Below, one piece after another: positions 34,252-45,603 of a stretch of DNA of 59,754 bases (its first letter is position 1; each line of letters opens with the position of its first letter). The notes under the pieces are model-generated. The model was given only the letters and a program-made list of their open reading frames with translations, had not been told where the DNA came from and made no database searches. The stretch is taken from contig JAUXMV010000102.1 of the NCBI GenBank assembly GCA_030683155.1, positions 1-59,754 of the forward strand, written 5' to 3'. Source of the DNA: Bacteroidales bacterium. GTDB lineage: Bacteria; Bacteroidota; Bacteroidia; Bacteroidales; F082. The position numbers and the translations under genes are program-made.

Positions 34252-35268
34252 ATGAGAGAAAAAATTGCGGACTTGCTGGAGCAGATACAAAGCTTCGAAG
34301 CCGAAAGCAGAGAACATCTTGAAACATTCAGGATTCAATACCTGAGTAAAAAAGGACTTATACCGGCCTTGTTCAATGATTTTAAGCAAGTGGCTGCCGA
34401 AGAGCGCAAGGAGATGGGCATGCTGCTTAACAATCTGAAACAGAAAGCTCAGGAAATACTTGATCTGCAGCAAGAGCGCTTTGCAGCTGTAAAGGAAAAC
34501 AAAATCCAGATGGATACAAGTCTTCCTGCACCCGCTATCGGTGGAGGAAGGCACCCGATTTCCATTGTCCGCCGCGATCTGAACAGCATCTTTGAAAGAA
34601 TTGGGTTTAAAATTGCCGAAGGTCCGGAAATTGAAGATGACTTCCATAATTTCACCGCCCTCAACTTCCCCGAAGAACATCCGGCACGCGATATGCAAGA
34701 CACTTTTTTTATCCGCAAATCACCTGATATTGCATTGCGCACCCACACATCGAGTGTTCAGGTACGTGTGATGGAACAAGGCAAGCTGCCCATTCGTATC
34801 ATTGCTCCCGGACGTGTGTTCCGCAACGAAGCCATCTCAGCCAGAGCGCATTGCATCTTTCATCAGATCGAAGGCTTGTACATTGATAAAGATGTTTCTT
34901 TTGCCGATCTGAAACAAACACTGTTTTATTTTGCGCAGGAGTTTTTTGGTCCGGAAACAAAAATCCGTTTTCGTCCTTCATACTTTCCTTTCACTGAAAC
35001 TTCAGCAGAGATGGACGTTTCGTGCAATATTTGCGGTGGAAAAGGCTGCAACATCTGCAAATACAGTGGTTGGGTAGAAATTCTGGGCTGTGGCATGGTC
35101 GATCCGAATGTGCTCGAAGCCTGCGGTATTGACAGCAATGTATACAGCGGCTATGCTTTCGGAATGGGCATCGAACGCATTACAATGATGAAATATCAAA
35201 TCAATGATCTGCGGCTGTTTTTTGAAAACGACATGCGTTTCCTCAAGCAGTTTGAGACGCTTGTTTGA
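34252..35268 (+). CDS. pheS: phenylalanyl-tRNA synthetase alpha subunit
   Basis: 338 residues. Class II catalytic subunit of the alpha2-beta2 enzyme. N-terminal coiled coil (1-90), then HPISIVRRDLNSIFERIGF, DTFFIRKSPDIALRTHTSS, FRNEAISARAHCIFHQIEGL (motif 2), PSYFPFTETSAEMDV and GFGMGIER-like FGMGIERITMMKY (motif 3). A Cys cluster CNICGGKGCNIC (about 260-272) is the bacterial zinc-type insertion. pheT is not in the window, as is usual when the two genes are separated in Bacteroidota. A terminator follows. Confidence 0.96.
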   Translation: MREKIADLLEQIQSFEAESREHLETFRIQYLSKKGLIPALFNDFKQVAAEERKEMGMLLNNLKQKAQEILDLQQERFAAVKENKIQMDTSLPAPAIGGGRHPISIVRRDLNSIFERIGFKIAEGPEIEDDFHNFTALNFPEEHPARDMQDTFFIRKSPDIALRTHTSSVQVRVMEQGKLPIRIIAPGRVFRNEAISARAHCIFHQIEGLYIDKDVSFADLKQTLFYFAQEFFGPETKIRFRPSYFPFTETSAEMDVSCNICGGKGCNICKYSGWVEILGCGMVDPNVLEACGIDSNVYSGYAFGMGIERITMMKYQINDLRLFFENDMRFLKQFETLV

Positions 35269-35558: not shown

Positions 35559-38500
35559 ATGGATTACAATTTTGGCGAAGTAGAAAAAAAGTGGCAGGAT
35601 TACTGGCGCGCAAACAAAATATATAAGGTTGACATCGATCATAGCAAGCCCAAGTTCTATGTGCTCGACATGTTTCCATATCCTTCGGGAGCTGGTTTGC
35701 ATGTGGGTCATCCACTTGGGTATATCGCTTCCGATATTTATTCGCGCTACAAAAGGCTCAAAGGATTCAACGTGCTGCACCCGATGGGCTATGATGCCTA
35801 TGGACTTCCTGCCGAACAATATGCCATTCAAACAGGGACACATCCTGCGGTTACAACAGAGAAAAATATTGCACGCTACCGCGAACAGCTCGACAAAATC
35901 GGTTTTTCATTCGATTGGGATCGTGAAGTAAGAACTTGTGAACCTGAATATTATAAATGGACGCAATGGACATTTATCAAGTTGTTTCAGTCGTGGTTCA
36001 ACAAAAAAAACAACAAGGCTGAGTCAATAGAAACATTGATTTCTATATTTGAAAAAGAAGGTAATCTGAATGTTGAAGCTGCTTCAAGCGATGCAGTAAC
36101 TTTTACAGCAGATAGCTGGAACAGCATGAGCGAAATTGCGCAGCAGGAAATGCTGATGCATTACCGTCTGGCTTATCTGGCAGATACGATGGTGAACTGG
36201 TGTCCTGCTTTGGGAACTGTTTTAGCCAACGATGAGGTCAGCGAGGGTCTTTCGGTGAGAGGCAATCATCCTGTGGAACGAAAATCGATGAAGCAGTGGC
36301 TGTTGCGAATTACTGCCTATGCCGACAGATTGCTCAACGGTTTGGAAAATATTGATTGGAGTGATTCATTGAAAGATATTCAGCGCAACTGGATTGGCAA
36401 ATCAGTGGGTGGCTCGCTGAAGTTTTCCATAGATGAAAGTGATGAAACCATCGAGGTCTTTACAACGCGGCCCGACACCATTTTCGGTGCCACATTCATG
36501 GTTTTGGCGCCCGAACATGAGCTTGTAAAGAAAATCACTACGCCATCGCAGCAAAAAGAAATTGAAGCCTATGTGAAACGGACCAAAAACCGTTCGGAAC
36601 GTGAGCGCATGGCTGAAGTGAAAAAAGTGAGCGGCGCCTTCACGGGCTCCTACGCACTCAATCCTTTTACCAATACTGAAATTCCAATCTGGATTGCCGA
36701 CTATGTGCTGATGGGCTATGGAACCGGTGCTATCATGGCTGTGCCTGCCCACGACAGCCGCGATTTTGCTTTCGCACGCCATTTTAGTTTGCCCATTGTT
36801 CAGGTGATAAAACAAAAAAGCGAAGAACTTTCAGATCCTTCCTCATGGGAAACATCTTACGATTCCAAAGAAGGTATTGCTGTGAATTCAGGCTTTATCG
36901 ACGGCATGGAAGTGAAAGAAGCCATAAAAGCTGTTGTTGCAGAGGCCGAAAAGAAAGGCATTGGTACAGCACGTATCAACTACCGTTTGCGTGATGCTAT
37001 TTTTAGCCGTCAGCGCTATTGGGGAGAACCTTTTCCTGTTTATTACAAAGATGGAATGCCATACGTTTTGAACGAAGATCAGCTGCCACTCGAGCTTCCG
37101 CCTGTAGATGCATTTTTGCCGACTGAAACCGGAGAACCGCCTTTGGCAAGAGCCAATAACTGGCATACCCCTCAAGGATTTCCCCTTGAAACCAACACAA
37201 TGCCCGGTTTCGCAGGTTCAAGCGCCTACTATCTGCGCTATATGGACCCCCGAAACGAAGAACGCTATTTTTCTGAAGAGGCCGTAAACTACTGGGAAAA
37301 CGTTGATTTATATATCGGAGGAGCCGAACATGCAACGGGTCACCTCATCTATGCACGTTTCTGGAATATGTTTCTTTTCGATCTGGGAATGGCTGTGAAA
37401 GAGGAGCCTTTTAAAAAGCTGATCAATCAGGGGATGATTCAAGGAAGATCGAGCATGGTTTACAGGGTTAATCCTGAAAAGATGGCCGAATACCTGCTTT
37501 GGGAACAACTGAAAGACCGCAAGCAAGGTGTGACATTCCGGAAAGATTTCCGTGATGGCAGCAGAAAATTTGATTTTTTCAGTGAAGAGGCTGGTATTGT
37601 CATTGAAGTGAACAAACAGAAATGGCTCGAGAAGCTGGTCAATCCATACGAAGAATATTGTCGTGAAAAAGGATACAAGCTTTTATTGATTCCGCTGCGC
37701 GATTTCGTTGACGACTTCGAAGGCATCCTTCAACGTATAAAAGCATTGATCAAGGGTGAAAATGTTCCCTCTTTCATTCCAAAAGAATCCCTGATGAACG
37801 TGCCGGTTTTTGTGTCTAAAAATATTCCCGGCAGAGAGTTCTATTCAGACCCGCTTCATGCTGACATCAGCCTTGTTCATAACGACATTCTCGACACAGA
37901 AGGCTTTAAAAAATGGCAGCCACACTTTGAGAATTCATTGTTTATCTGCGAAAACGGCCGCTATGTATGTGGCTACGAAGTGGAAAAGATGTCGAAATCA
38001 AAGTACAATGTGCAAAACCCTGATGAGCTGATCGAGCGTTATGGAGCCGACACTTTGCGCCTTTACGAAATGTTTCTGGGGCCATTGGAGCAGTCGAAAC
38101 CCTGGGATACACAAGGCATTGAAGGCGTGTTCAGGTTCATCCGCAAGTTTTGGAGACTTTTCCACAATGAGCAGAATATTTTCTCTGTCAGCAATGAGCC
38201 TGCCGCAGAGGCCGAACTAAAAATTCTTCATAAAACCATCCGCAAGATTGAGGATGATATCGAGCGTTTTTCATTCAATACGGCTGTTTCTGCATTTATG
38301 ATTTGCGTGAACGATCTGAACGAGTTAAAATGCAACAAGCGTGAAATCCTTGAGCCGCTCACGGTATTGATTTCAGCTTATGCACCCCATTTGGCCGAGG
38401 AACTTTGGCAGATGCTTGGCCATAATGAAAGTGTTGTATTGCAGCAGTTTCCTGTTTGCAGGGAAGAGTATTTGATAGAAAACTCCGTTTTTTACCCTGT

Positions 38501-38669
38501 TTCATTTAACGGCAAAACACGATTCAAGATTGAACTTCCGGCTGATATGCCACCTGCAGAAGTTGAAAAAGTTGTATTGGCTTCGGAAGAGGCTAAAAAG
38601 TGGACTGAAGGAAAACAAGTCAGGAAAATAATCGTTGTACCACAACGAATTATCAATATTGTATTATAA
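35559..38669 (+). CDS. leuS: leucyl-tRNA synthetase with inserted DUF559-like domain
   Basis: 1036 residues, about 90 longer than the Bacteroides enzymes. Class I synthetase for tRNA-Leu. HVGH (48-51) is the HIGH motif, KMSKS lies at about 810-814. The editing (CP1) domain includes [16 protein letters not shown] and [19 protein letters not shown]. The C-terminal domain is normal. The extra material is in residues 638-732, between [13 protein letters not shown] and VPVFVSKNI, which in other Bacteroidota are joined by a short loop. It resembles DUF559 (see the domain entry). The enzyme frame is intact on both sides. Preceded by a 290-bp gap without genes. It overlaps the DUF3108 gene by one base. 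Confidence 0.95.
37470..37754 (+). other. DUF559 / PD-(D/E)XK nuclease-like domain inserted in leuS
   Basis: Residues 638-732 read [20 protein letters not shown], then [20 protein letters not shown], then [26 protein letters not shown] and [11 protein letters not shown]. This follows the DUF559 plan (E-x-x-LW-x-x-L-R, FRRQ-x-x-I-x-x-Y-x-x-DFY, L-x-x-x-I-E-x-D-G, GY-x-V-L-x-F-x-x, E-x-x-L-x-x-I). The core acidic residues would be D672 and E683, both present; the usual D-G-x-x-H segment is replaced by N-K-Q-K-W. Similarity is judged by eye. Confidence 0.65.
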
Positions 38670-39585: not shown

Positions 39586-42500
39586 ATGAATGGTTTACCT
39601 TCCTTTCTAAGAGTTGGTCTCATTGCAGGGATGATTCTTCTGCTGAATCCCGGTTTTACAAATTCTGACAAGCATAAGAGCTTTAAGCAATTGTGGGAAG
39701 AAATTGAAACTTTTACCGAAAAGGGGCTGCCAAAATCGGCGCTGCAACTACTCGATGTGCTGCATCAGAAAGCCATGGCAGAAAAAAACAATCCGCAGCT
39801 GCTGAAAGCAACGCTTTACAGGTTCAGCCTGTGGCAGTCATTTGAGGAAGACCACCTGCTGAAGGCTATTGGCTATGCCAAAGACCAGCTCCCTTTGCTG
39901 GAAAGTCCGGGCCGCGAGGTGCTGCATTCAGTTATTGCCGAGCTTTATTGGTTTTACTATCAACAGAACCAGCACACGATTCTCAGCCGCACAGATTTGT
40001 TGAACCATCCTTCTGCCGATCCCCGCGAATGGGACCTTTCCAGACTGCGCAATGCAATTACCGAACATTACGACCAAAGTCTCCGTGCTCAAAACAGAAT
40101 GGATACCATCCCTTTGAAAAGCTATGAGCTTATACTCGTATCTGTTCCAAAAGAAGCCTTCCTTCTTCAGCCTTCACTTTATGATTTTGTAGCAGGCAGA
40201 GCTTTGGATTATTATCTCAACAACGATGCTTCGCTTCAGGATGTGGCACCATCAGTCGAAATGAAAAACTTAAGATTGTGGCAGCCCGCCAATATTTTTG
40301 CCACACTTCCCATGCCACGGGGCGATCATCAGCACCACATTGCTTTGAGCCTTTTTCAAAAAATGCTGGCATCCAACCTGCGGCAGAAACATGCCGATGC
40401 CCTGATTGCAAATGAAATCAAACGCTACAGTTTTTTAAGAATGAATTACAGTGGTCCGGAATCAGCTGATTCACTTTATTTTGATGCGCTGACAAGCCTC
40501 CAAAATCGTTATGAGAAGCTACCGGCATCAACTGAAGTTGCTTCACTCAGGGCAGCATTTCTTTTGGAAAACAGGGAAATCTTAACAAAGGATCAAAGCA
40601 AAGAAGCTGGAAATCTTGCCAAAGCACTTGAAATTTGTGATGCAGCTATCAAGGCTTTTCCTGAAAGCAGAGGGGCAAAACTATGTATGCAGCAACGCGA
40701 ACAGGTGCTTCAAAAAGAACTTTCGGTGAATGTGCAGAGAGTTGAATTGCCCGGCAGACCTATCCCTGCATTTCTTAATTACAGAAATATAACTAAGCCC
40801 GCCTTCAGGATTGTCAATGTATCAAGCGAAACACTTGAAAATATTATGGGTAAGCTCGATCAGGAAGAGCGACTGACAGCATTTTTAAAACTTCAGTCAG
40901 CACATCAGTGGCAGATTGATCTGCCTTTTGAGCCGGACTATAGTTTGCATAACACCATTATTGATTTGCCCGCACTTTCAACAGGTCTTTACGTTCTGCT
41001 TGTGGCCGAAAGCGATGATTTCAGCCCACAGGGCATCATAGCCTTCACCTCATTTCAGGTAAGCAACCATAGCTTTGTGAGTCTTAAACGCAATGATGCC
41101 AATCATTTTTATCTGCTTGACCGCGACAGCGGAAAAGCTGTTAGCGGAGCTACCATTCGTGTGATGACGCGTGACTACGATTACACCACACGCCGTTACC
41201 ATGTCAGCAATCGCATAACACTGAAAAGTGGAAAAGACGGCAGTTTTAAGGTAGCACCTGATGCAGCCATACCAAAGAATCAGGCTTTCTACATTGAAGC
41301 CATGACCAAAAACGACACGCTTTATAGCGACAACTACTTTGATCTTTACGAACGCAGAACCAATACACGCAAACAAACCAAGACATGGTTTTTCACGGAC
41401 AGGGCAATCTATCGGCCGGGACAAACAGTTTATTTCAAGGGGATTACGCTTGAGAGATTGGGTGATCAGGAATGGAAGACAGGAGAAAAGCTCAGCTCAT
41501 TGGTGAAATTTTTTGATGTAAACAGCCGCGAAGTAGCCGCGATTCAACTAAAAACCAATGAATTTGGTTCATTTGAAGGCAGTTTCACAGCACCATCCGG
41601 CGTCCTGAATGGCATGATGCGCATCAGCAATGAGTATGGGTCGGTTATGTTTTCTGTTGAAGAATACAAGAGGCCGACTTTTGAAGTGAAACTTGAGCCA
41701 GCCGACAAACAGTTCAGGCTCAACGACACAGTACTGGTAAGCGGCGAAGCAAAAGCTTTTGCAGGCTATGGCCTCGACAGTGTTGCGTTCACCTACCGCG
41801 TTGAAAGAGAAAAATATTATCCATACAGACCTTGGTGGAGAATTTTTCCCCCTATGTCACAACGCAAGATGCTCATTGCAGAAGGAAAATCCTTTACACG
41901 CACAGACGGCAGTTTCAGCATCCGATTCAATGCCCTGCCTGAATCGGGGTCAACATCAAAAGATCAGGCTGTCTATTCCTATACAATAACAGCAGATGTG
42001 ACAGACCGGAACGGAGAAACACGCAGCAACAGCAAGAGCATTCAAATCGGGGAGGTGGCGCTGATAATGAAAACCAATCTCGAAAAAGTTATTTCAAAAA
42101 GTGAAACTGAAAGATTCATGCTTTCCGCATTCAACCTGCAGGACAGGGCAGTAAATTCACAGATGGAGCTTAAGTTTTACAAATTGTCTGAGCAAAAACT
42201 TCTTTCGAGGCCTTCGATGTGGCCAAAGCCAGACAGAAACTATCATTCAGAAGAGAAACTTAGATTGTTGTTTCCGCTGGATAATTTTGGAGATTCTGAC
42301 GACCTAGAAACCCGTGAAAAGATGCTTATTCATCAACAGAACAGCTTTGTCATGGGTTCCATAAAACTTTTTCCTGATGGGATCAATACCTGGCAGGATG
42401 GCGAATATCTCGCGGAAGCCGTTGCTCTGGATGATTTTGGACGCGAAGTAAAAATGCAGGAAATTTTCACCCTTTACGGAGAGAAAAACAAGAGTCTTCC

Positions 42501-45500
42501 CGTGAAAGAACTTGCATGGTTCCATCTGAACAAAAAAGAGGCATTACCCGGCGACACCGTAATGTTTTTTGTTGGATCGGCTGTCAAAGCCAATCGTGTT
42601 CTTATTGAGATTACAAGTGGAAACGAAGTGTTTTACAGCAAATGGCACAATGTAAGCAACAAAAAGCTGGCGATACCATTTATCGTTAAAGAAGAGCAGC
42701 GCGGCACACTTACTTTTCAGGCTGTTTTTGTGAAACACAACAGACTTCTGAAGTCAGCCTTTGACCTTGATGTGCCTTTCACGAATAAAATGCTCGATAT
42801 TAGCCTTGAAACAAAACGCGAAAAACTGAGCCCCGGTGCTGAAGAAACATGGACGTTCAAAGTGAGTGGCAAGAACAGTGAGAAAGTTGCAGCTGAACTT
42901 CTGGCCTCCATGTATGATGCATCGCTGGATCAGTTCAGGGAACACAGCTGGTCGTTCAATCCTATAGACCGCAAGCCGGGAAGTGCGCGATGGATGTCGG
43001 ACAACGGATTCCTTTCTTACAGCACAAGCAGGCTGACGCGCTATCAGCAAACAGACTACCATGTGCATCCGCTGCCTGAAATCCAACTGAACTGGTTTGG
43101 CTTACAGCCCTTCAACAGGTTTGGATATACTGACAAGCTCAGATCGACAATGATGGCAAAATCAGCCCATGTGCATGAAGGCGAAGTGGGTCTGTTCTCA
43201 GTAGTGCAAGACAACGCTGCAGGTCAGATTGCAGAATCTATGGAAGCAGACGAAGAACAATCAGTGAAAGAGCCTGCACCACAAGCCACGATGCTGCGTT
43301 CAGATTTCCGTGAGACGGCCTTCTTTTTTCCGCAGCTGAACACCGACGCCAATGGCAATCTGAGTTTCAGTTTCCGGCTACCCGATGCCCTGACACGATG
43401 GAGACTGATGCTGCTGGCACATTCCAAAGACTTAAAGACAGGCAGCAACACCTATAATTTCACAGCATCAAAAGATCTGATGATTGTTCCCAATCAACCA
43501 CGGTTTTATCGCGAAGGTGATACCGCTTTTCTGGCTGCAAAAATTGTAAATACAAGTACAGAAACACTGAGTGGCATTGCACGGCTTGAAATAAGCGATC
43601 CATTCAACAGCAAAGCATTGTCATATTTTGTGAACAATCAGGCACAGCGTCCCTTCATCAACCTGAAGCCGGGACAAAGTCAGGAACTGAAATGGCATAT
43701 CGCTGTTGATGGTAAAGTTTCTATGCTGGCATTGCGTTTCAGCGTTTCATCAGGCCTTTTTACCGACAGTGAAGAGCAGCTTGTTCCGGTGCTGCCAATG
43801 GGCGTGCTTGTTACCGAAACAATGCCCATGCAGCTGGCAGGAAACAGCAACAAAACCTTCGTATTCAAAAGCCTTCAGGAGCAAGGTCCAAAAGAGAAAA
43901 ACCAACGACTGAATCTGCAGTTTAGCAACAATCCTGCGTGGTATGCCATTCAGGCTTTACCATACATCCATGAGACCGGACAAGAACATTCCGATAACAT
44001 TTTCTATCGCTACTATGCCAATACACTGGCATCTTATGTAGCCAACAGCATTCCGGGCGTGATGAAAGTGATGGAAAGCTGGAGGCAGGCTGGCAGCGAT
44101 GCACTGCTTTCAAATCTTGAAAAAAATGAAGCGCTGAAGTCGGTGATACTTGCTGAAACACCCTGGGTGATTGATGCCGCTGACGAAACTCAACAAAAGA
44201 AGAATATTGCCCTTCTGTTCGATCTGAACCGCATGCGCTATGAGCAGGAACAAGCCATAAAAAAACTGCAGGAAGCACAGCTGCCCGATGGTTCATGGGC
44301 ATGGTTTCCGGGAATGCCGGGTAACAGACATATCACGTTGAATATCGTTACCGGAATGGGCAAACTCCGGCAGATGGTTCCTGATATTGGCCGCGACAGA
44401 CAAACTGGGATGGCAATTGCCAATGCGATCCAGTATCTTGACAAGGAAAACCGCAGCGACTATGATAAAATGGTAAAGAACAAGAGTCTGGACACCTATA
44501 AAATAAGTAGTCAGCATCTGGGCTACCTTTATGCGAGAAGCTTCTTTACTGACCTTATTCCAGATGAAGACACACAGAAAGTGATCGACTTTTATCTATC
44601 ACATGCTGCCAAAGACTGGCTGCCACTCGACCATGGAATGCAGGCTGTGGCTGCAATGGTTTTGCATCGTAGCGGAAGTGCAGTCAAAGCAAAGGCAATT
44701 CTTGCTTCTCTGCGTGAAAGAGCTCTCAGAGATGCAGTGCTGGGAACCTATTGGAAGCGGTCCAATACTTTTTATTTCAGCCAGACACCCGTTGAATCAC
44801 ATGCAATGCTTATTGCTGCTTTCGATGAAATAGACAACGATATCGCATGGATTGACGAAATGCGCACCTATTTGCTTACGCAGAAACAAACCAACAGATG
44901 GAAGACCGGCCGTGCAACTGCTGAAGCTGTGTACGCGCTGCTCCTGAAGGGAAGTGACTGGATAACAGATATTCATCCGCTGACGATTGTTGTGGGAGGA
45001 GAAGCTTTGGAAAGCCCTACTGCTGAGGCCGGAACAGGCCTTTTAACAAAAGACTGGTTTGCAGGCGACATAAACAAAGCCATGGCAACAGTAGAAGTTA
45101 AAAATCCAAACAAGGTGATGGCCTGGGGAGCGATGTTCAGACAGTTTGTGGTTCCGCTGGATCAGGTGAAAGCAAGTCAGACGCAACTGAGCGTAAGCAA
45201 GGAACTTTTCGTTGAAAAGCCCGGCAAGCAAGGGATGGTGCTGGTTCCGCTAAAAAATAATCCTATCAGAGTGGGTGATAAAGTAAGGGTTCGCATTGTG
45301 CTGCAGGCCGACCGCGATATGGAGTTTGTGCATATGAAAGACCAGCGCGCTGCATCTTTTGAGCCGGTAGATGTGATCTCAGGTTATCAGTTCAATTTTG
45401 GTTTGGGTTACTACCAATCAACCCGCGATGCCTCAACAGACTTCTTCTTTGGCTATCTTCCAAAAGGTAAATATGTGTTTGAGTATAGTCTGGTGGCTAT

Positions 45501-45603
45501 GCAACGCGGCGACTTTACAAATGGCTATGCAAAGATTCAAAGTTTCTATGCACCGGAATTTTCAAGTCATAGTGAAGGAATCAGGGTGAAGGTTTTGGAG
45601 TAG
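39586..45603 (+). CDS. alpha-2-macroglobulin family protein, very large, thioester motif lost
   Basis: 2005 residues, signal sequence (VGLIAGMILLLNPGFTNS). The first about 400 residues are helical repeats specific to bacteroidal members, then MG-type beta domains (FFTDRAIYRPGQTVYFKGI is the MG2 signature), then the A2M core (REAFFFPQLNTDANGNLSF-like ETAFFFPQL, LTRWRLMLLAHSKDLKTG) and an alpha/alpha toroid (GSWAWFPGMPGN ... LNIVTGMGKLR). Where thioester members have E-C-x-E-Q-x-F the sequence is EHSDNIF (1467-1473), so C and Q are replaced by H and N. Such proteins trap proteases or act as envelope structural partners. No pbpC is next to it. Confidence 0.9.
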   Translation: MNGLPSFLRVGLIAGMILLLNPGFTNSDKHKSFKQLWEEIETFTEKGLPKSALQLLDVLHQKAMAEKNNPQLLKATLYRFSLWQSFEEDHLLKAIGYAKDQLPLLESPGREVLHSVIAELYWFYYQQNQHTILSRTDLLNHPSADPREWDLSRLRNAITEHYDQSLRAQNRMDTIPLKSYELILVSVPKEAFLLQPSLYDFVAGRALDYYLNNDASLQDVAPSVEMKNLRLWQPANIFATLPMPRGDHQHHIALSLFQKMLASNLRQKHADALIANEIKRYSFLRMNYSGPESADSLYFDALTSLQNRYEKLPASTEVASLRAAFLLENREILTKDQSKEAGNLAKALEICDAAIKAFPESRGAKLCMQQREQVLQKELSVNVQRVELPGRPIPAFLNYRNITKPAFRIVNVSSETLENIMGKLDQEERLTAFLKLQSAHQWQIDLPFEPDYSLHNTIIDLPALSTGLYVLLVAESDDFSPQGIIAFTSFQVSNHSFVSLKRNDANHFYLLDRDSGKAVSGATIRVMTRDYDYTTRRYHVSNRITLKSGKDGSFKVAPDAAIPKNQAFYIEAMTKNDTLYSDNYFDLYERRTNTRKQTKTWFFTDRAIYRPGQTVYFKGITLERLGDQEWKTGEKLSSLVKFFDVNSREVAAIQLKTNEFGSFEGSFTAPSGVLNGMMRISNEYGSVMFSVEEYKRPTFEVKLEPADKQFRLNDTVLVSGEAKAFAGYGLDSVAFTYRVEREKYYPYRPWWRIFPPMSQRKMLIAEGKSFTRTDGSFSIRFNALPESGSTSKDQAVYSYTITADVTDRNGETRSNSKSIQIGEVALIMKTNLEKVISKSETERFMLSAFNLQDRAVNSQMELKFYKLSEQKLLSRPSMWPKPDRNYHSEEKLRLLFPLDNFGDSDDLETREKMLIHQQNSFVMGSIKLFPDGINTWQDGEYLAEAVALDDFGREVKMQEIFTLYGEKNKSLPVKELAWFHLNKKEALPGDTVMFFVGSAVKANRVLIEITSGNEVFYSKWHNVSNKKLAIPFIVKEEQRGTLTFQAVFVKHNRLLKSAFDLDVPFTNKMLDISLETKREKLSPGAEETWTFKVSGKNSEKVAAELLASMYDASLDQFREHSWSFNPIDRKPGSARWMSDNGFLSYSTSRLTRYQQTDYHVHPLPEIQLNWFGLQPFNRFGYTDKLRSTMMAKSAHVHEGEVGLFSVVQDNAAGQIAESMEADEEQSVKEPAPQATMLRSDFRETAFFFPQLNTDANGNLSFSFRLPDALTRWRLMLLAHSKDLKTGSNTYNFTASKDLMIVPNQPRFYREGDTAFLAAKIVNTSTETLSGIARLEISDPFNSKALSYFVNNQAQRPFINLKPGQSQELKWHIAVDGKVSMLALRFSVSSGLFTDSEEQLVPVLPMGVLVTETMPMQLAGNSNKTFVFKSLQEQGPKEKNQRLNLQFSNNPAWYAIQALPYIHETGQEHSDNIFYRYYANTLASYVANSIPGVMKVMESWRQAGSDALLSNLEKNEALKSVILAETPWVIDAADETQQKKNIALLFDLNRMRYEQEQAIKKLQEAQLPDGSWAWFPGMPGNRHITLNIVTGMGKLRQMVPDIGRDRQTGMAIANAIQYLDKENRSDYDKMVKNKSLDTYKISSQHLGYLYARSFFTDLIPDEDTQKVIDFYLSHAAKDWLPLDHGMQAVAAMVLHRSGSAVKAKAILASLRERALRDAVLGTYWKRSNTFYFSQTPVESHAMLIAAFDEIDNDIAWIDEMRTYLLTQKQTNRWKTGRATAEAVYALLLKGSDWITDIHPLTIVVGGEALESPTAEAGTGLLTKDWFAGDINKAMATVEVKNPNKVMAWGAMFRQFVVPLDQVKASQTQLSVSKELFVEKPGKQGMVLVPLKNNPIRVGDKVRVRIVLQADRDMEFVHMKDQRAASFEPVDVISGYQFNFGLGYYQSTRDASTDFFFGYLPKGKYVFEYSLVAMQRGDFTNGYAKIQSFYAPEFSSHSEGIRVKVLE

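What the first reader, a model, noticed from the sequence alone, without database searches (positions are those of the whole stretch)
37470..37754. Nuclease-like DUF559 domain built into leucyl-tRNA synthetase
Seen: leuS is 1036 residues in one frame, with about 95 extra residues (638-732) between [13 protein letters not shown] and VPVFVSKNI, upstream of KMSKS. The extra part follows the DUF559 pattern ([47 protein letters not shown]). Known: DUF559 is Vsr-like, of the PD-(D/E)XK nuclease fold; LeuRS of Bacteroides (about 940 residues) has only a loop here. Inference: a restriction-like domain was captured by the synthetase, either as an active nuclease, an RNA-handling module or an inert domain. 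D672 and E683 are kept, but DG-x-x-H is not.
Basis: partly seen in the sequence, partly recalled or inferred. Interest (0 to 1): 0.75.

Follow-up and report, generated by a model that had tools for sequence, protein, structure and literature searches.

The report
Disarmed nuclease domain inside leucyl-tRNA synthetase
Some Bacteroidales bacteria carry, inside the enzyme that charges tRNA with leucine, an extra domain descended from a DNA-cutting nuclease family; it has lost key cutting residues but is kept by selection, while intact relatives of that nuclease are found in frame inside other essential enzymes.

Summary
Confirmed. leuS (35559-38669, the genome's only leuS) has about 98 extra residues (638-735) at the leucine-specific-domain position before KMSKS. 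The window's copy alone is borderline for DUF559 (20.7 bits, cut-off 20.6), but its family is clearly homologous (profile-profile probability 99.2%), and the domain model (pLDDT 94) resembles 3hrl, homing endonuclease I-Bth0305I and Vsr.

The insert sits at one exact site in 30 of 393 sampled genomes of the order, in 16 families, beside insert-free sisters even within the window's genus. The 59 site inserts placed in a tree form one clade. They keep E644, D672 and E683 but not D685, H689, R697 or R710 (0 of 59), which 74-77 of 77 other DUF559 domains keep. dN/dS is low (0.079; rest of LeuRS 0.061). Four LeuRS of one genus deleted the domain, leaving a scar.

Intact DUF559 domains also lie in frame inside LeuRS (other sites), ValRS, IleRS, MetH, RecG and HsdR of other Bacteroidota, some with palindromic ends. 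The window's domain is best read as an old, disarmed capture, kept as an RNA- or tRNA-handling module. That function is inferred, not shown.

The parts
35559..38669 (+). leuS, leucyl-tRNA synthetase, 1036 aa; the only leuS of the genome
   Evidence: (TIGR00396 954.9 bits, cut-off 548.4)
35700..35711 (+). class I HIGH motif (HVGH, residues 48-51)
   Evidence: invariant in the 28 LeuRS of alignment A3
37470..37763 (+). DUF559-derived inserted domain, residues 638-735 (reader: 37470-37754)
37488..37490 (+). E644 codon, helix-1 Glu of the nuclease motif, kept in 97 of 98 unique inserts
37572..37574 (+). D672 codon, metal-site Asp position, kept in 96 of 98
37605..37607 (+). E683 codon, kept in 96 of 98
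37611..37613 (+). residue 685 (N here; K 45, N 43, R 7 of 98), where 74 of 77 other DUF559 domains have D
37623..37625 (+). residue 689 (W here), where 77 of 77 other DUF559 domains have the catalytic-type His
37755..37832 (+). tail of the insert (residues 733-758), rebuilt relative to the 21-aa loop of insert-free LeuRS; S753-K754-N755 invariant in A3
37986..38000 (+). KMSKS loop (residues 810-814), downstream of the insert

Best explanation
A DUF559 (Vsr-like, PD-(D/E)XK-fold) nuclease domain was captured in frame once, in an ancestor within the Bacteroidales, at the root of the LeuRS leucine-specific (LS) domain, between the strand ending ...VYR and the KMSKS loop. It lost the Q/D/G/H/D/R/R residues that other DUF559 domains keep, gained a new conserved set (N638, E640, K641, R669, F671, L690, K692, Y700, P712), and has since been kept by purifying selection as part of the cell's only LeuRS. 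Presence and absence were then reshuffled among lineages, most simply by recombination with insert-free alleles, plus at least one outright deletion. Most likely way of working (inferred): like the Vsr-like RNA-binding protein FASTKD4, whose cavity keeps the active-site Asp and lacks the His, it binds RNA without cutting it, here as an extension of the LS domain that helps seat the tRNA-Leu acceptor end and buttress the KMSKS loop. SHOWN by calls: homology, fold of the isolated domain, site, one clade, loss of catalytic-type residues, purifying selection, patchiness, a scar. INFERRED: direction of capture, lack of nuclease activity, recombination, tRNA binding.
For: Homology: (PDB 3hrl, profile E 7e-6). 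Fold: pLDDT 94.4; 3hrl E 6e-4, TM 0.60/0.81, the only hit below 0.001; I-Bth0305I 5e-3 and 8e-3; Vsr 1vsr 0.12. One clade: (59 site inserts on one side of a branch, SH-aLRT 99; test of one clade run on the 57 then labelled so, not rejected, p 0.87). Disarming. Selection: (341 overlapping pairs, median dN/dS insert 0.079, body 0.061, none at or above 0.5; 24 disjoint pairs 0-0.26). Only leuS. Site at the LS-domain position before KMSKS; LS domain buttresses the KMSKS loop and guides tRNA: PMC5059758, passages. Non-cutting Vsr-like precedent with Asp kept and His replaced by Asn: PMC11879112, passages; residue 689 is N in 17 and S in 22 of 59 aligned site inserts.
Against: No direct evidence of tRNA binding; the whole-LeuRS model failed, so placement rests on sequence alone. 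Mean net charge of the domain is about zero (-0.3), not what an RNA binder would suggest. E644, E683 and D672 are ranks 2, 3 and 4 in conservation of 98 columns, which could mean a metal centre that still works. Four LeuRS of one genus deleted the domain, so it is dispensable there. The tree does not show which DUF559 lineage was the donor, nor its direction.
Confidence: 0.55

Rival explanations
1. A working nuclease with a reconfigured metal centre: E644, D672, E683 and, in about half of the clade, K685 form a canonical D-ExK site acting on RNA or DNA, for example on tRNA-Leu.
For: E644, D672, E683 kept in 97, 96 and 96 of 98 unique inserts, among the four most conserved of 98 columns; K685 in 45 of 98.
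Against: Residue 685 is N in 43 of 98, the window included. The family's D685, H689 and two Arg are kept in 0 of 59 site inserts, Q663 and D694 in 1, G686 in 3. L190 has lost both E644 and D672 yet keeps the domain at the same site. A nuclease inside the only LeuRS would be risky.
Confidence: 0.12
2. Structural filler: a tolerated insertion whose fold, not function, is maintained because an unfolded 98-residue insert would harm LeuRS.
For: Patchy presence, a deletion scar in four sequences, insert-free sisters in the same genus.
Against: dN/dS close to that of LeuRS; clade-specific near-invariant polar residues (E640 95, K641 95, K692 91, R669 91 of 98), which fold maintenance alone does not readily explain.
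Confidence: 0.23
3. A homing-type selfish domain in leuS: the domain itself drove its spread by cutting insert-free leuS and being copied in, at least in the past.
For: At least 16 state changes at one exact site on the LeuRS tree; the insert fits the rest-of-LeuRS tree worse than any of 8 body windows or the 110 most variable body columns; fewer state changes in windows over the site, 11-14, than in the 12 others, 14-20; second-nearest fold is a homing endonuclease.
Against: Catalytic-type residues lost through the clade; the close pair L267/L269 shows no recent transfer of the insert (81% nt, like the body); all body windows also reject the rest-of-body tree, so ordinary recombination or lack of signal may suffice.
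Confidence: 0.1

Closest known systems
DUF559 / PF04480 proteins (Vsr-like; 3hrl; Caulobacter VsrA)
   Same: Sequence profile, fold, E644/W648/D672/E683.
   Different: Inside LeuRS; D685, H689, R697, R710 gone in 59 of 59, Q663 and D694 in 58, G686 in 56.
EDxHD homing endonuclease I-Bth0305I (3r3p) and Vsr (1vsr)
   Same: Foldseek hits 2, 3 and 7; Glu and Asp of the Vsr active site kept (numbering from PMC12907096, passages).
   Different: Active-site His absent; no recent spread in the one pair tested; part of a synthetase.
FASTKD4 (Vsr-like cavity with RAP domain) and mitoribosomal Vsr-fold chains
   Same: Vsr-like cavity with Asp kept and His replaced; reported to bind RNA without cutting (PMC11879112, passages); T. 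gondii mitoribosome chains are Foldseek hits 4-6, E about 0.07-0.08 (that these are RAP proteins is recalled).
   Different: Eukaryotic, different host proteins; no sequence relation tested.
Leucine-specific domain of bacterial LeuRS
   Same: Same place before KMSKS; also lineage-variable and missing in some LeuRS (PMC5059758, passages).
   Different: Here the native LS segment is kept and the DUF559 domain is added; that the folds differ is recalled.
Rickettsia palindromic elements
   Same: Palindromic repeats inserted in frame in genes (PMC10969869, passages), like the elements found here at other sites.
   Different: RPEs are given as about 150 bp with a conserved peptide; the window's insert is a nuclease-derived domain without palindromic ends under a strict scan.

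Membership tests
Leucyl-tRNA synthetase, bacterial (TIGR00396) | Score above the curated cut-off (548.4 bits) | tested here: met
   954.9 bits; the only gene over the cut-off in the genome
Leucyl-tRNA synthetase, bacterial (TIGR00396) | HIGH and KMSKS motifs and editing domain | tested here: met
   HVGH 48-51 and KMSKS 810-814 invariant in A3; PF13603 editing domain 1e-68
DUF559 (PF04480) | Pfam gathering score 20.6 bits | tested here: inconclusive
   20.7 (95 aa), 20.5 (98 aa), 15.1 (whole protein); no match listed in the own genome at E 0.001
DUF559 (PF04480) | Homology at family level | tested here: met
   9 of 9 relatives hit, best 1.5e-6; hhalign 99.2% versus below 0.4% in 5 shuffles
DUF559 (PF04480) | Conserved E...Q...D...E-x-D-G-x2-H...D...R (pattern read here from 77 other domains) | tested here: not met
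   E, D, E kept; D685, H689, R697, R710 in 0 of 59, Q663 and D694 in 1, G686 in 3
PD-(D/E)XK / Vsr-like fold | Structural match to solved members | tested here: met
   3hrl E 6e-4; 3r3p and 1vsr weaker
PD-(D/E)XK / Vsr-like nuclease | Nuclease activity | not testable with these tools
   needs purified protein
In-frame palindromic DUF559 element (as seen at the CP1 site) | Palindromic terminal repeats at the insert ends | tested here: not met
   no C/T-A/G hairpin with perfect arms of 7 or more in the window; looser forms not scanned
Intein | Splicing domains | tested here: not met
   no intein family among the 6 Pfam hits of the whole protein at E up to 10

The most novel reading that the evidence does not exclude
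DUF559 is the enzyme of a coding mobile element that lands in frame inside essential enzymes of Bacteroidota (LeuRS at two further sites, ValRS, IleRS, MetH, RecG, HsdR and others), is translated as part of its host with its palindromic ends, and now and then is domesticated; the window's LeuRS domain is such a copy, turned from DNA nuclease into a tRNA-side module of the synthetase.
Probability: 0.4. Interest if true: 0.82.

Novelty: new variant of a known kind. Interest (0 to 1): 0.64.

Why it matters
Accessory domains of tRNA synthetases are usually seen long after they were acquired. Here insert-bearing, insert-free and insert-deleted versions of the same essential enzyme coexist among close relatives, and intact relatives of the same domain sit in frame in the same gene at other sites. 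That makes the step from nuclease to enzyme part directly testable with natural controls. It would also be a bacterial counterpart to the non-cutting Vsr-like RNA binder FASTKD4, and it points to a mobile life for some DUF559 genes.

Tried and rejected
Whole-LeuRS structure (28 sequences) gave pLDDT 64.3 and pTM 0.32, so the domain could not be placed on the enzyme. A PDB search with the single insert gave only chance hits, best E 0.099; the profile was needed. A recent transfer of the insert between L267 and L269 looked likely from 92% aa identity but was rejected: nt identity is 81% there, like the rest of the gene. The AU test of insert against body tree looked decisive, but all 8 body windows and the most-variable-columns control also reject the rest-of-body tree, so it is reported as suggestive only. 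The palindrome-end pattern was found in none of the 6 genomes of the window's genus searched and in 8 of 60 of the family; it had a slip (CCTC for CCCC) covered by the one mismatch allowed, and one of the 8 genomes also had a hit with the reversed control pattern. Of 6 DUF559-bearing CP1 inserts read at DNA level (L280, L279, L077, L194, L199, L178), 3 had a perfect hairpin (arm 8 or more) at both ends (L178, L279, L280) and 1 at one end. Perfect-arm hairpins lie on both sides of the match in 4 of 29 loci L032-L060, that is 4 of 22 standalone genes (L033, L035, L038, L040; the match is taken to lie mid-locus), so palindromes are not claimed as general. The CP1 script anchored on a GA motif, so LeuRS with GG there, the window among them, were not measured at that site. 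In one search two rows labelled CP1 (L236, L237) fall inside the site-insert clade, and one search aligns their residues 1-637 without a break, so they are site inserts; they were counted so (59 rows, the diverged L190 included). In one search scar sequences were counted as insert-bearing, as insert-free.

Full report
WHAT IS THERE. leuS runs 35559..38669 on the + strand, 1036 aa. It is a full bacterial LeuRS (TIGR00396 954.9 bits, cut-off 548.4) and the only one over that cut-off in the genome, so it must do the cell's leucine charging. Residues 638-735 (37470-37763) are extra. They begin straight after ...SSMVYRV and end before the segment that leads to KMSKS (810-814). Against T. thermophilus LeuRS the alignment stops at residue 628 and resumes at 810, the place of the leucine-specific (LS) domain (that this is the LS domain is recalled; its place next to the KMSKS loop fits PMC5059758, passages). 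The segment after the insert that insert-free LeuRS also have (from about residue 766) is still present.

IS IT DUF559? Alone, the window's copy is borderline: 20.7 bits for 95 aa, 20.5 for 98 aa, 15.1 for the whole protein, cut-off 20.6. A PF04480 scan of the own genome listed nothing at E 0.001, and NCBIfam gave no family for the insert. At family level the case is strong. Nine relatives all hit PF04480 (at E up to 1), best 1.5e-6. A profile of the nine finds the Neisseria endonuclease-like 3hrl at 7e-6. Independently aligned profiles of 59 site inserts and 22 standalone Bacteroidota DUF559 domains match with 99.2% probability (E 7.6e-20); 5 column-shuffled controls stay below 0.4%. AlphaFold2 on 47 inserts gives a confident fold, pLDDT 94.4. 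Its nearest solved structures are 3hrl (the only hit below E 0.001), the homing endonuclease I-Bth0305I, T. gondii mitoribosome chains and Vsr.

DISTRIBUTION. In 395 genomes drawn from the phylum, no match other than the window's own exceeded 45 bits. In 393 genomes of the order, 93 had some DUF559 match at E 1e-5, and 30 of these are inserts at this LeuRS site (29 at 57 bits or more, loci L031 and L061-L088, plus the diverged L190), in 16 families. A scan of named genome contigs gave 121 relatives, of which the best 80 were kept; by title they are MAGs or uncultured genomes of Bacteroidales or other Bacteroidota, with one 'bacterium F082' and one labelled Methanobrevibacter. The length at the site is bimodal: of 131 anchored frames 111 have 127-134 residues, 18 have 21 and 2 have 41 or 49 (many frames were fetched through the insert). 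In the window's genus five genomes carry it (G000, G003, G004, G006, G007), two do not (G001, G005), one shows only a fragment of leuS (G002) and one none (G008).

ONE CAPTURE, THEN RESHUFFLING. In a tree of 136 DUF559 domains the 59 site inserts lie on one side of a branch (SH-aLRT 99), apart from standalone, CP1 and other in-gene copies, which are intermixed; holding the 57 then labelled as site inserts together is not rejected, p 0.87. The tree has about 100 columns and an arbitrary root, so it does not name the donor. On a LeuRS tree built without the insert (132 unique sequences, FastTree) the state changes at least 16 times, 14 of them forced by well-supported branches. Insert-free LeuRS with 21 residues share one ordinary loop (such as IAGTNTYVSAGL...), not a deletion scar, so most absences look ancestral or brought in by recombination. 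One real loss is visible: L235, L273, L274 and L275 keep both ends of the insert (VNK[ED]KM... and ...LF[VI]SKNCKDRELFSDPI) around a deleted core. Identities of insert and body correlate over 3240 pairs (Pearson 0.86), with exceptions such as L107, whose insert is nearest to L100, L099 and L005 although its body is nearest to L250. The insert core fits the rest-of-LeuRS tree worse (1.21 log-likelihood units per column) than 8 body windows (0.30-0.96) or the 110 most variable body columns (0.29), but all of these reject that tree too, so this is only suggestive. Tree windows over the site need 11-14 state changes, the 12 others 14-20. The two insert-free genus-mates are on average closer to their insert-bearing genus than to insert-free LeuRS of other genera all along the gene stretch compared; within 30 columns of the site the difference is small (for L010 78 against 75 and 68 against 65%; for L011 86 against 77 and 64 against 60%), so any swapped tract is short. 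The close pair L267/L269 shows no recent transfer of the insert.

DISARMED BUT SELECTED. Numbering on the window: 77 other DUF559 domains keep E644, Q663, D672, E683 and H689 in 77 of 77, D685 in 74, G686 and D694 in 76, R697 and R710 in 75. The 59 site inserts keep W648 (59), E644 (58), E683 (58) and D672 (57), but D685, H689, R697 and R710 in 0, Q663 and D694 in 1 and G686 in 3 (two of them, L004 and L005, in the window's genus). New near-invariant residues appear: N638 56, E640 56, K641 56, F671 55, L690 55, P712 53, R669 52, K692 52, Y700 51 of 59. In Vsr and the DUF559 protein VsrA the active site is given as E, D, H or D, H, D (PMC12907096, passages); by spacing, only the first two remain here. 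Over 341 overlapping pairs of insert-bearing LeuRS (body dS 0.15-1.2) median dN/dS is 0.079 for the insert, 0.061 for the rest and 0.036 for the editing domain; no pair reaches 0.5. So the domain is neither decaying nor an intact Vsr-type nuclease. The three acidic residues are ranks 2-4 of 98 columns in conservation, which keeps a metal-binding role open.

THE WIDER PICTURE. The same domain, with intact motif, sits in frame in other Bacteroidota enzymes. At the LeuRS CP1 (editing-domain) junction 24 of 94 anchored frames have 154-330 residues where 17-20 are usual (some genomes fetched twice). LeuRS has a third site in L181. Of 17 other long frames scanned with NCBIfam, 8 exceed a host family's cut-off: MetH (L172, L185), RecG (L174), HisF (L176), ValRS (L195), IleRS (L200), HsdR (L191, L177); L198 (HsdM), L180 (PglX), L046 (PurQ/PurL) and L049 (HutG) match below cut-off, and five gave no clear host. 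Three LeuRS carry both the CP1 and the LS-site copy (L206, L207, L208), and L098 is a fourth by script only. Many CP1 copies are bracketed by translated palindromes (SPALSRGEG......VLPFGEDLGGV). Of 6 read at DNA level, 3 have perfect hairpins at both ends; in L178 the two 34-base ends are inverted repeats, 31 of 34 (ACCTCACCCCCAACCCCTCTCC-AGT-GGAGAGGGG and CCCCTCTCC-TCA-GGAGAGGGG-CTGGGGGTGAGGT). Some LeuRS of the window's own family hold such modules at CP1 without DUF559 (L025 45 aa, L026 55, L286 66), and L283-L285 hold several in a row. The window's insert has no such ends in a strict scan, and the end pattern was absent from its genome. That the window's domain came from such an element is plausible, not shown.

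HOW IT MOST LIKELY WORKS. The LS domain moves between LeuRS states, buttresses the KMSKS loop and guides tRNA into the site, and some LeuRS lack it (PMC5059758, passages). A domain added at its root is well placed to act on the tRNA acceptor end. FASTKD4, with a Vsr-like cavity in which the His is Asn and the Asp is kept, was reported to bind RNA without nuclease activity (PMC11879112, passages); in the LeuRS clade residue 689 is Ser in 22 and Asn in 17 of 59 with D672 kept. I therefore put most weight on a non-cutting RNA-side module. Against this, the domain's mean net charge is near zero and no structure shows contact.

LITERATURE. A search for 'leucyl-tRNA synthetase' with 'DUF559' gave 0 papers. 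'DUF559' gave 14, of which I saw the listing, and passages of two. Eight further searches listed nothing on a DUF559 domain in LeuRS by title or start of abstract. The library is open-access only, so this does not prove novelty; protein databases may already show the architecture.

VERDICT. A real, surprising and well-supported domain capture; a new variant of a known kind (accessory domain of a synthetase). My estimates: homology and fold about 0.97, single capture about 0.85, not a Vsr-type nuclease about 0.85, functional under selection about 0.75, tRNA-side role about 0.5.

Noticed in passing
L178, L279, L280, L283-L285 and other CP1-site LeuRS: In-frame palindromic modules, with or without DUF559, sit singly or in a row at the LeuRS editing-domain junction in the window's own family and in other groups of the phylum.
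   Followed up: partly
L172, L185 (MetH); L174 (RecG); L195 (ValRS); L200 (IleRS); L176 (HisF); L177, L191 (HsdR); by eye also L186 (MetH) and L183, L184, L188 (RecG): DUF559 domains with intact motif inside or fused to housekeeping enzymes, some with GEG/GED-like flanks.
   Followed up: partly
L235, L273, L274, L275: LeuRS with a 36-aa scar where the DUF559 core was deleted: natural domain-less controls.
   Followed up: yes
L150 (NZ_JAFSNZ010000003.1): A record titled Methanobrevibacter carries a leuS that falls among rumen Bacteroidales, most likely a mis-binned contig.
   Followed up: no
L181, LeuRS residues about 574-672: A third LeuRS insertion site for DUF559, in a genome of the same class.
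   Followed up: no
window 39586-45603 and 34252-35268: A 2005-aa open frame that looks like an alpha-2-macroglobulin-type protein, and a pheS-like frame upstream of leuS (both by eye, not tested).
   Followed up: no
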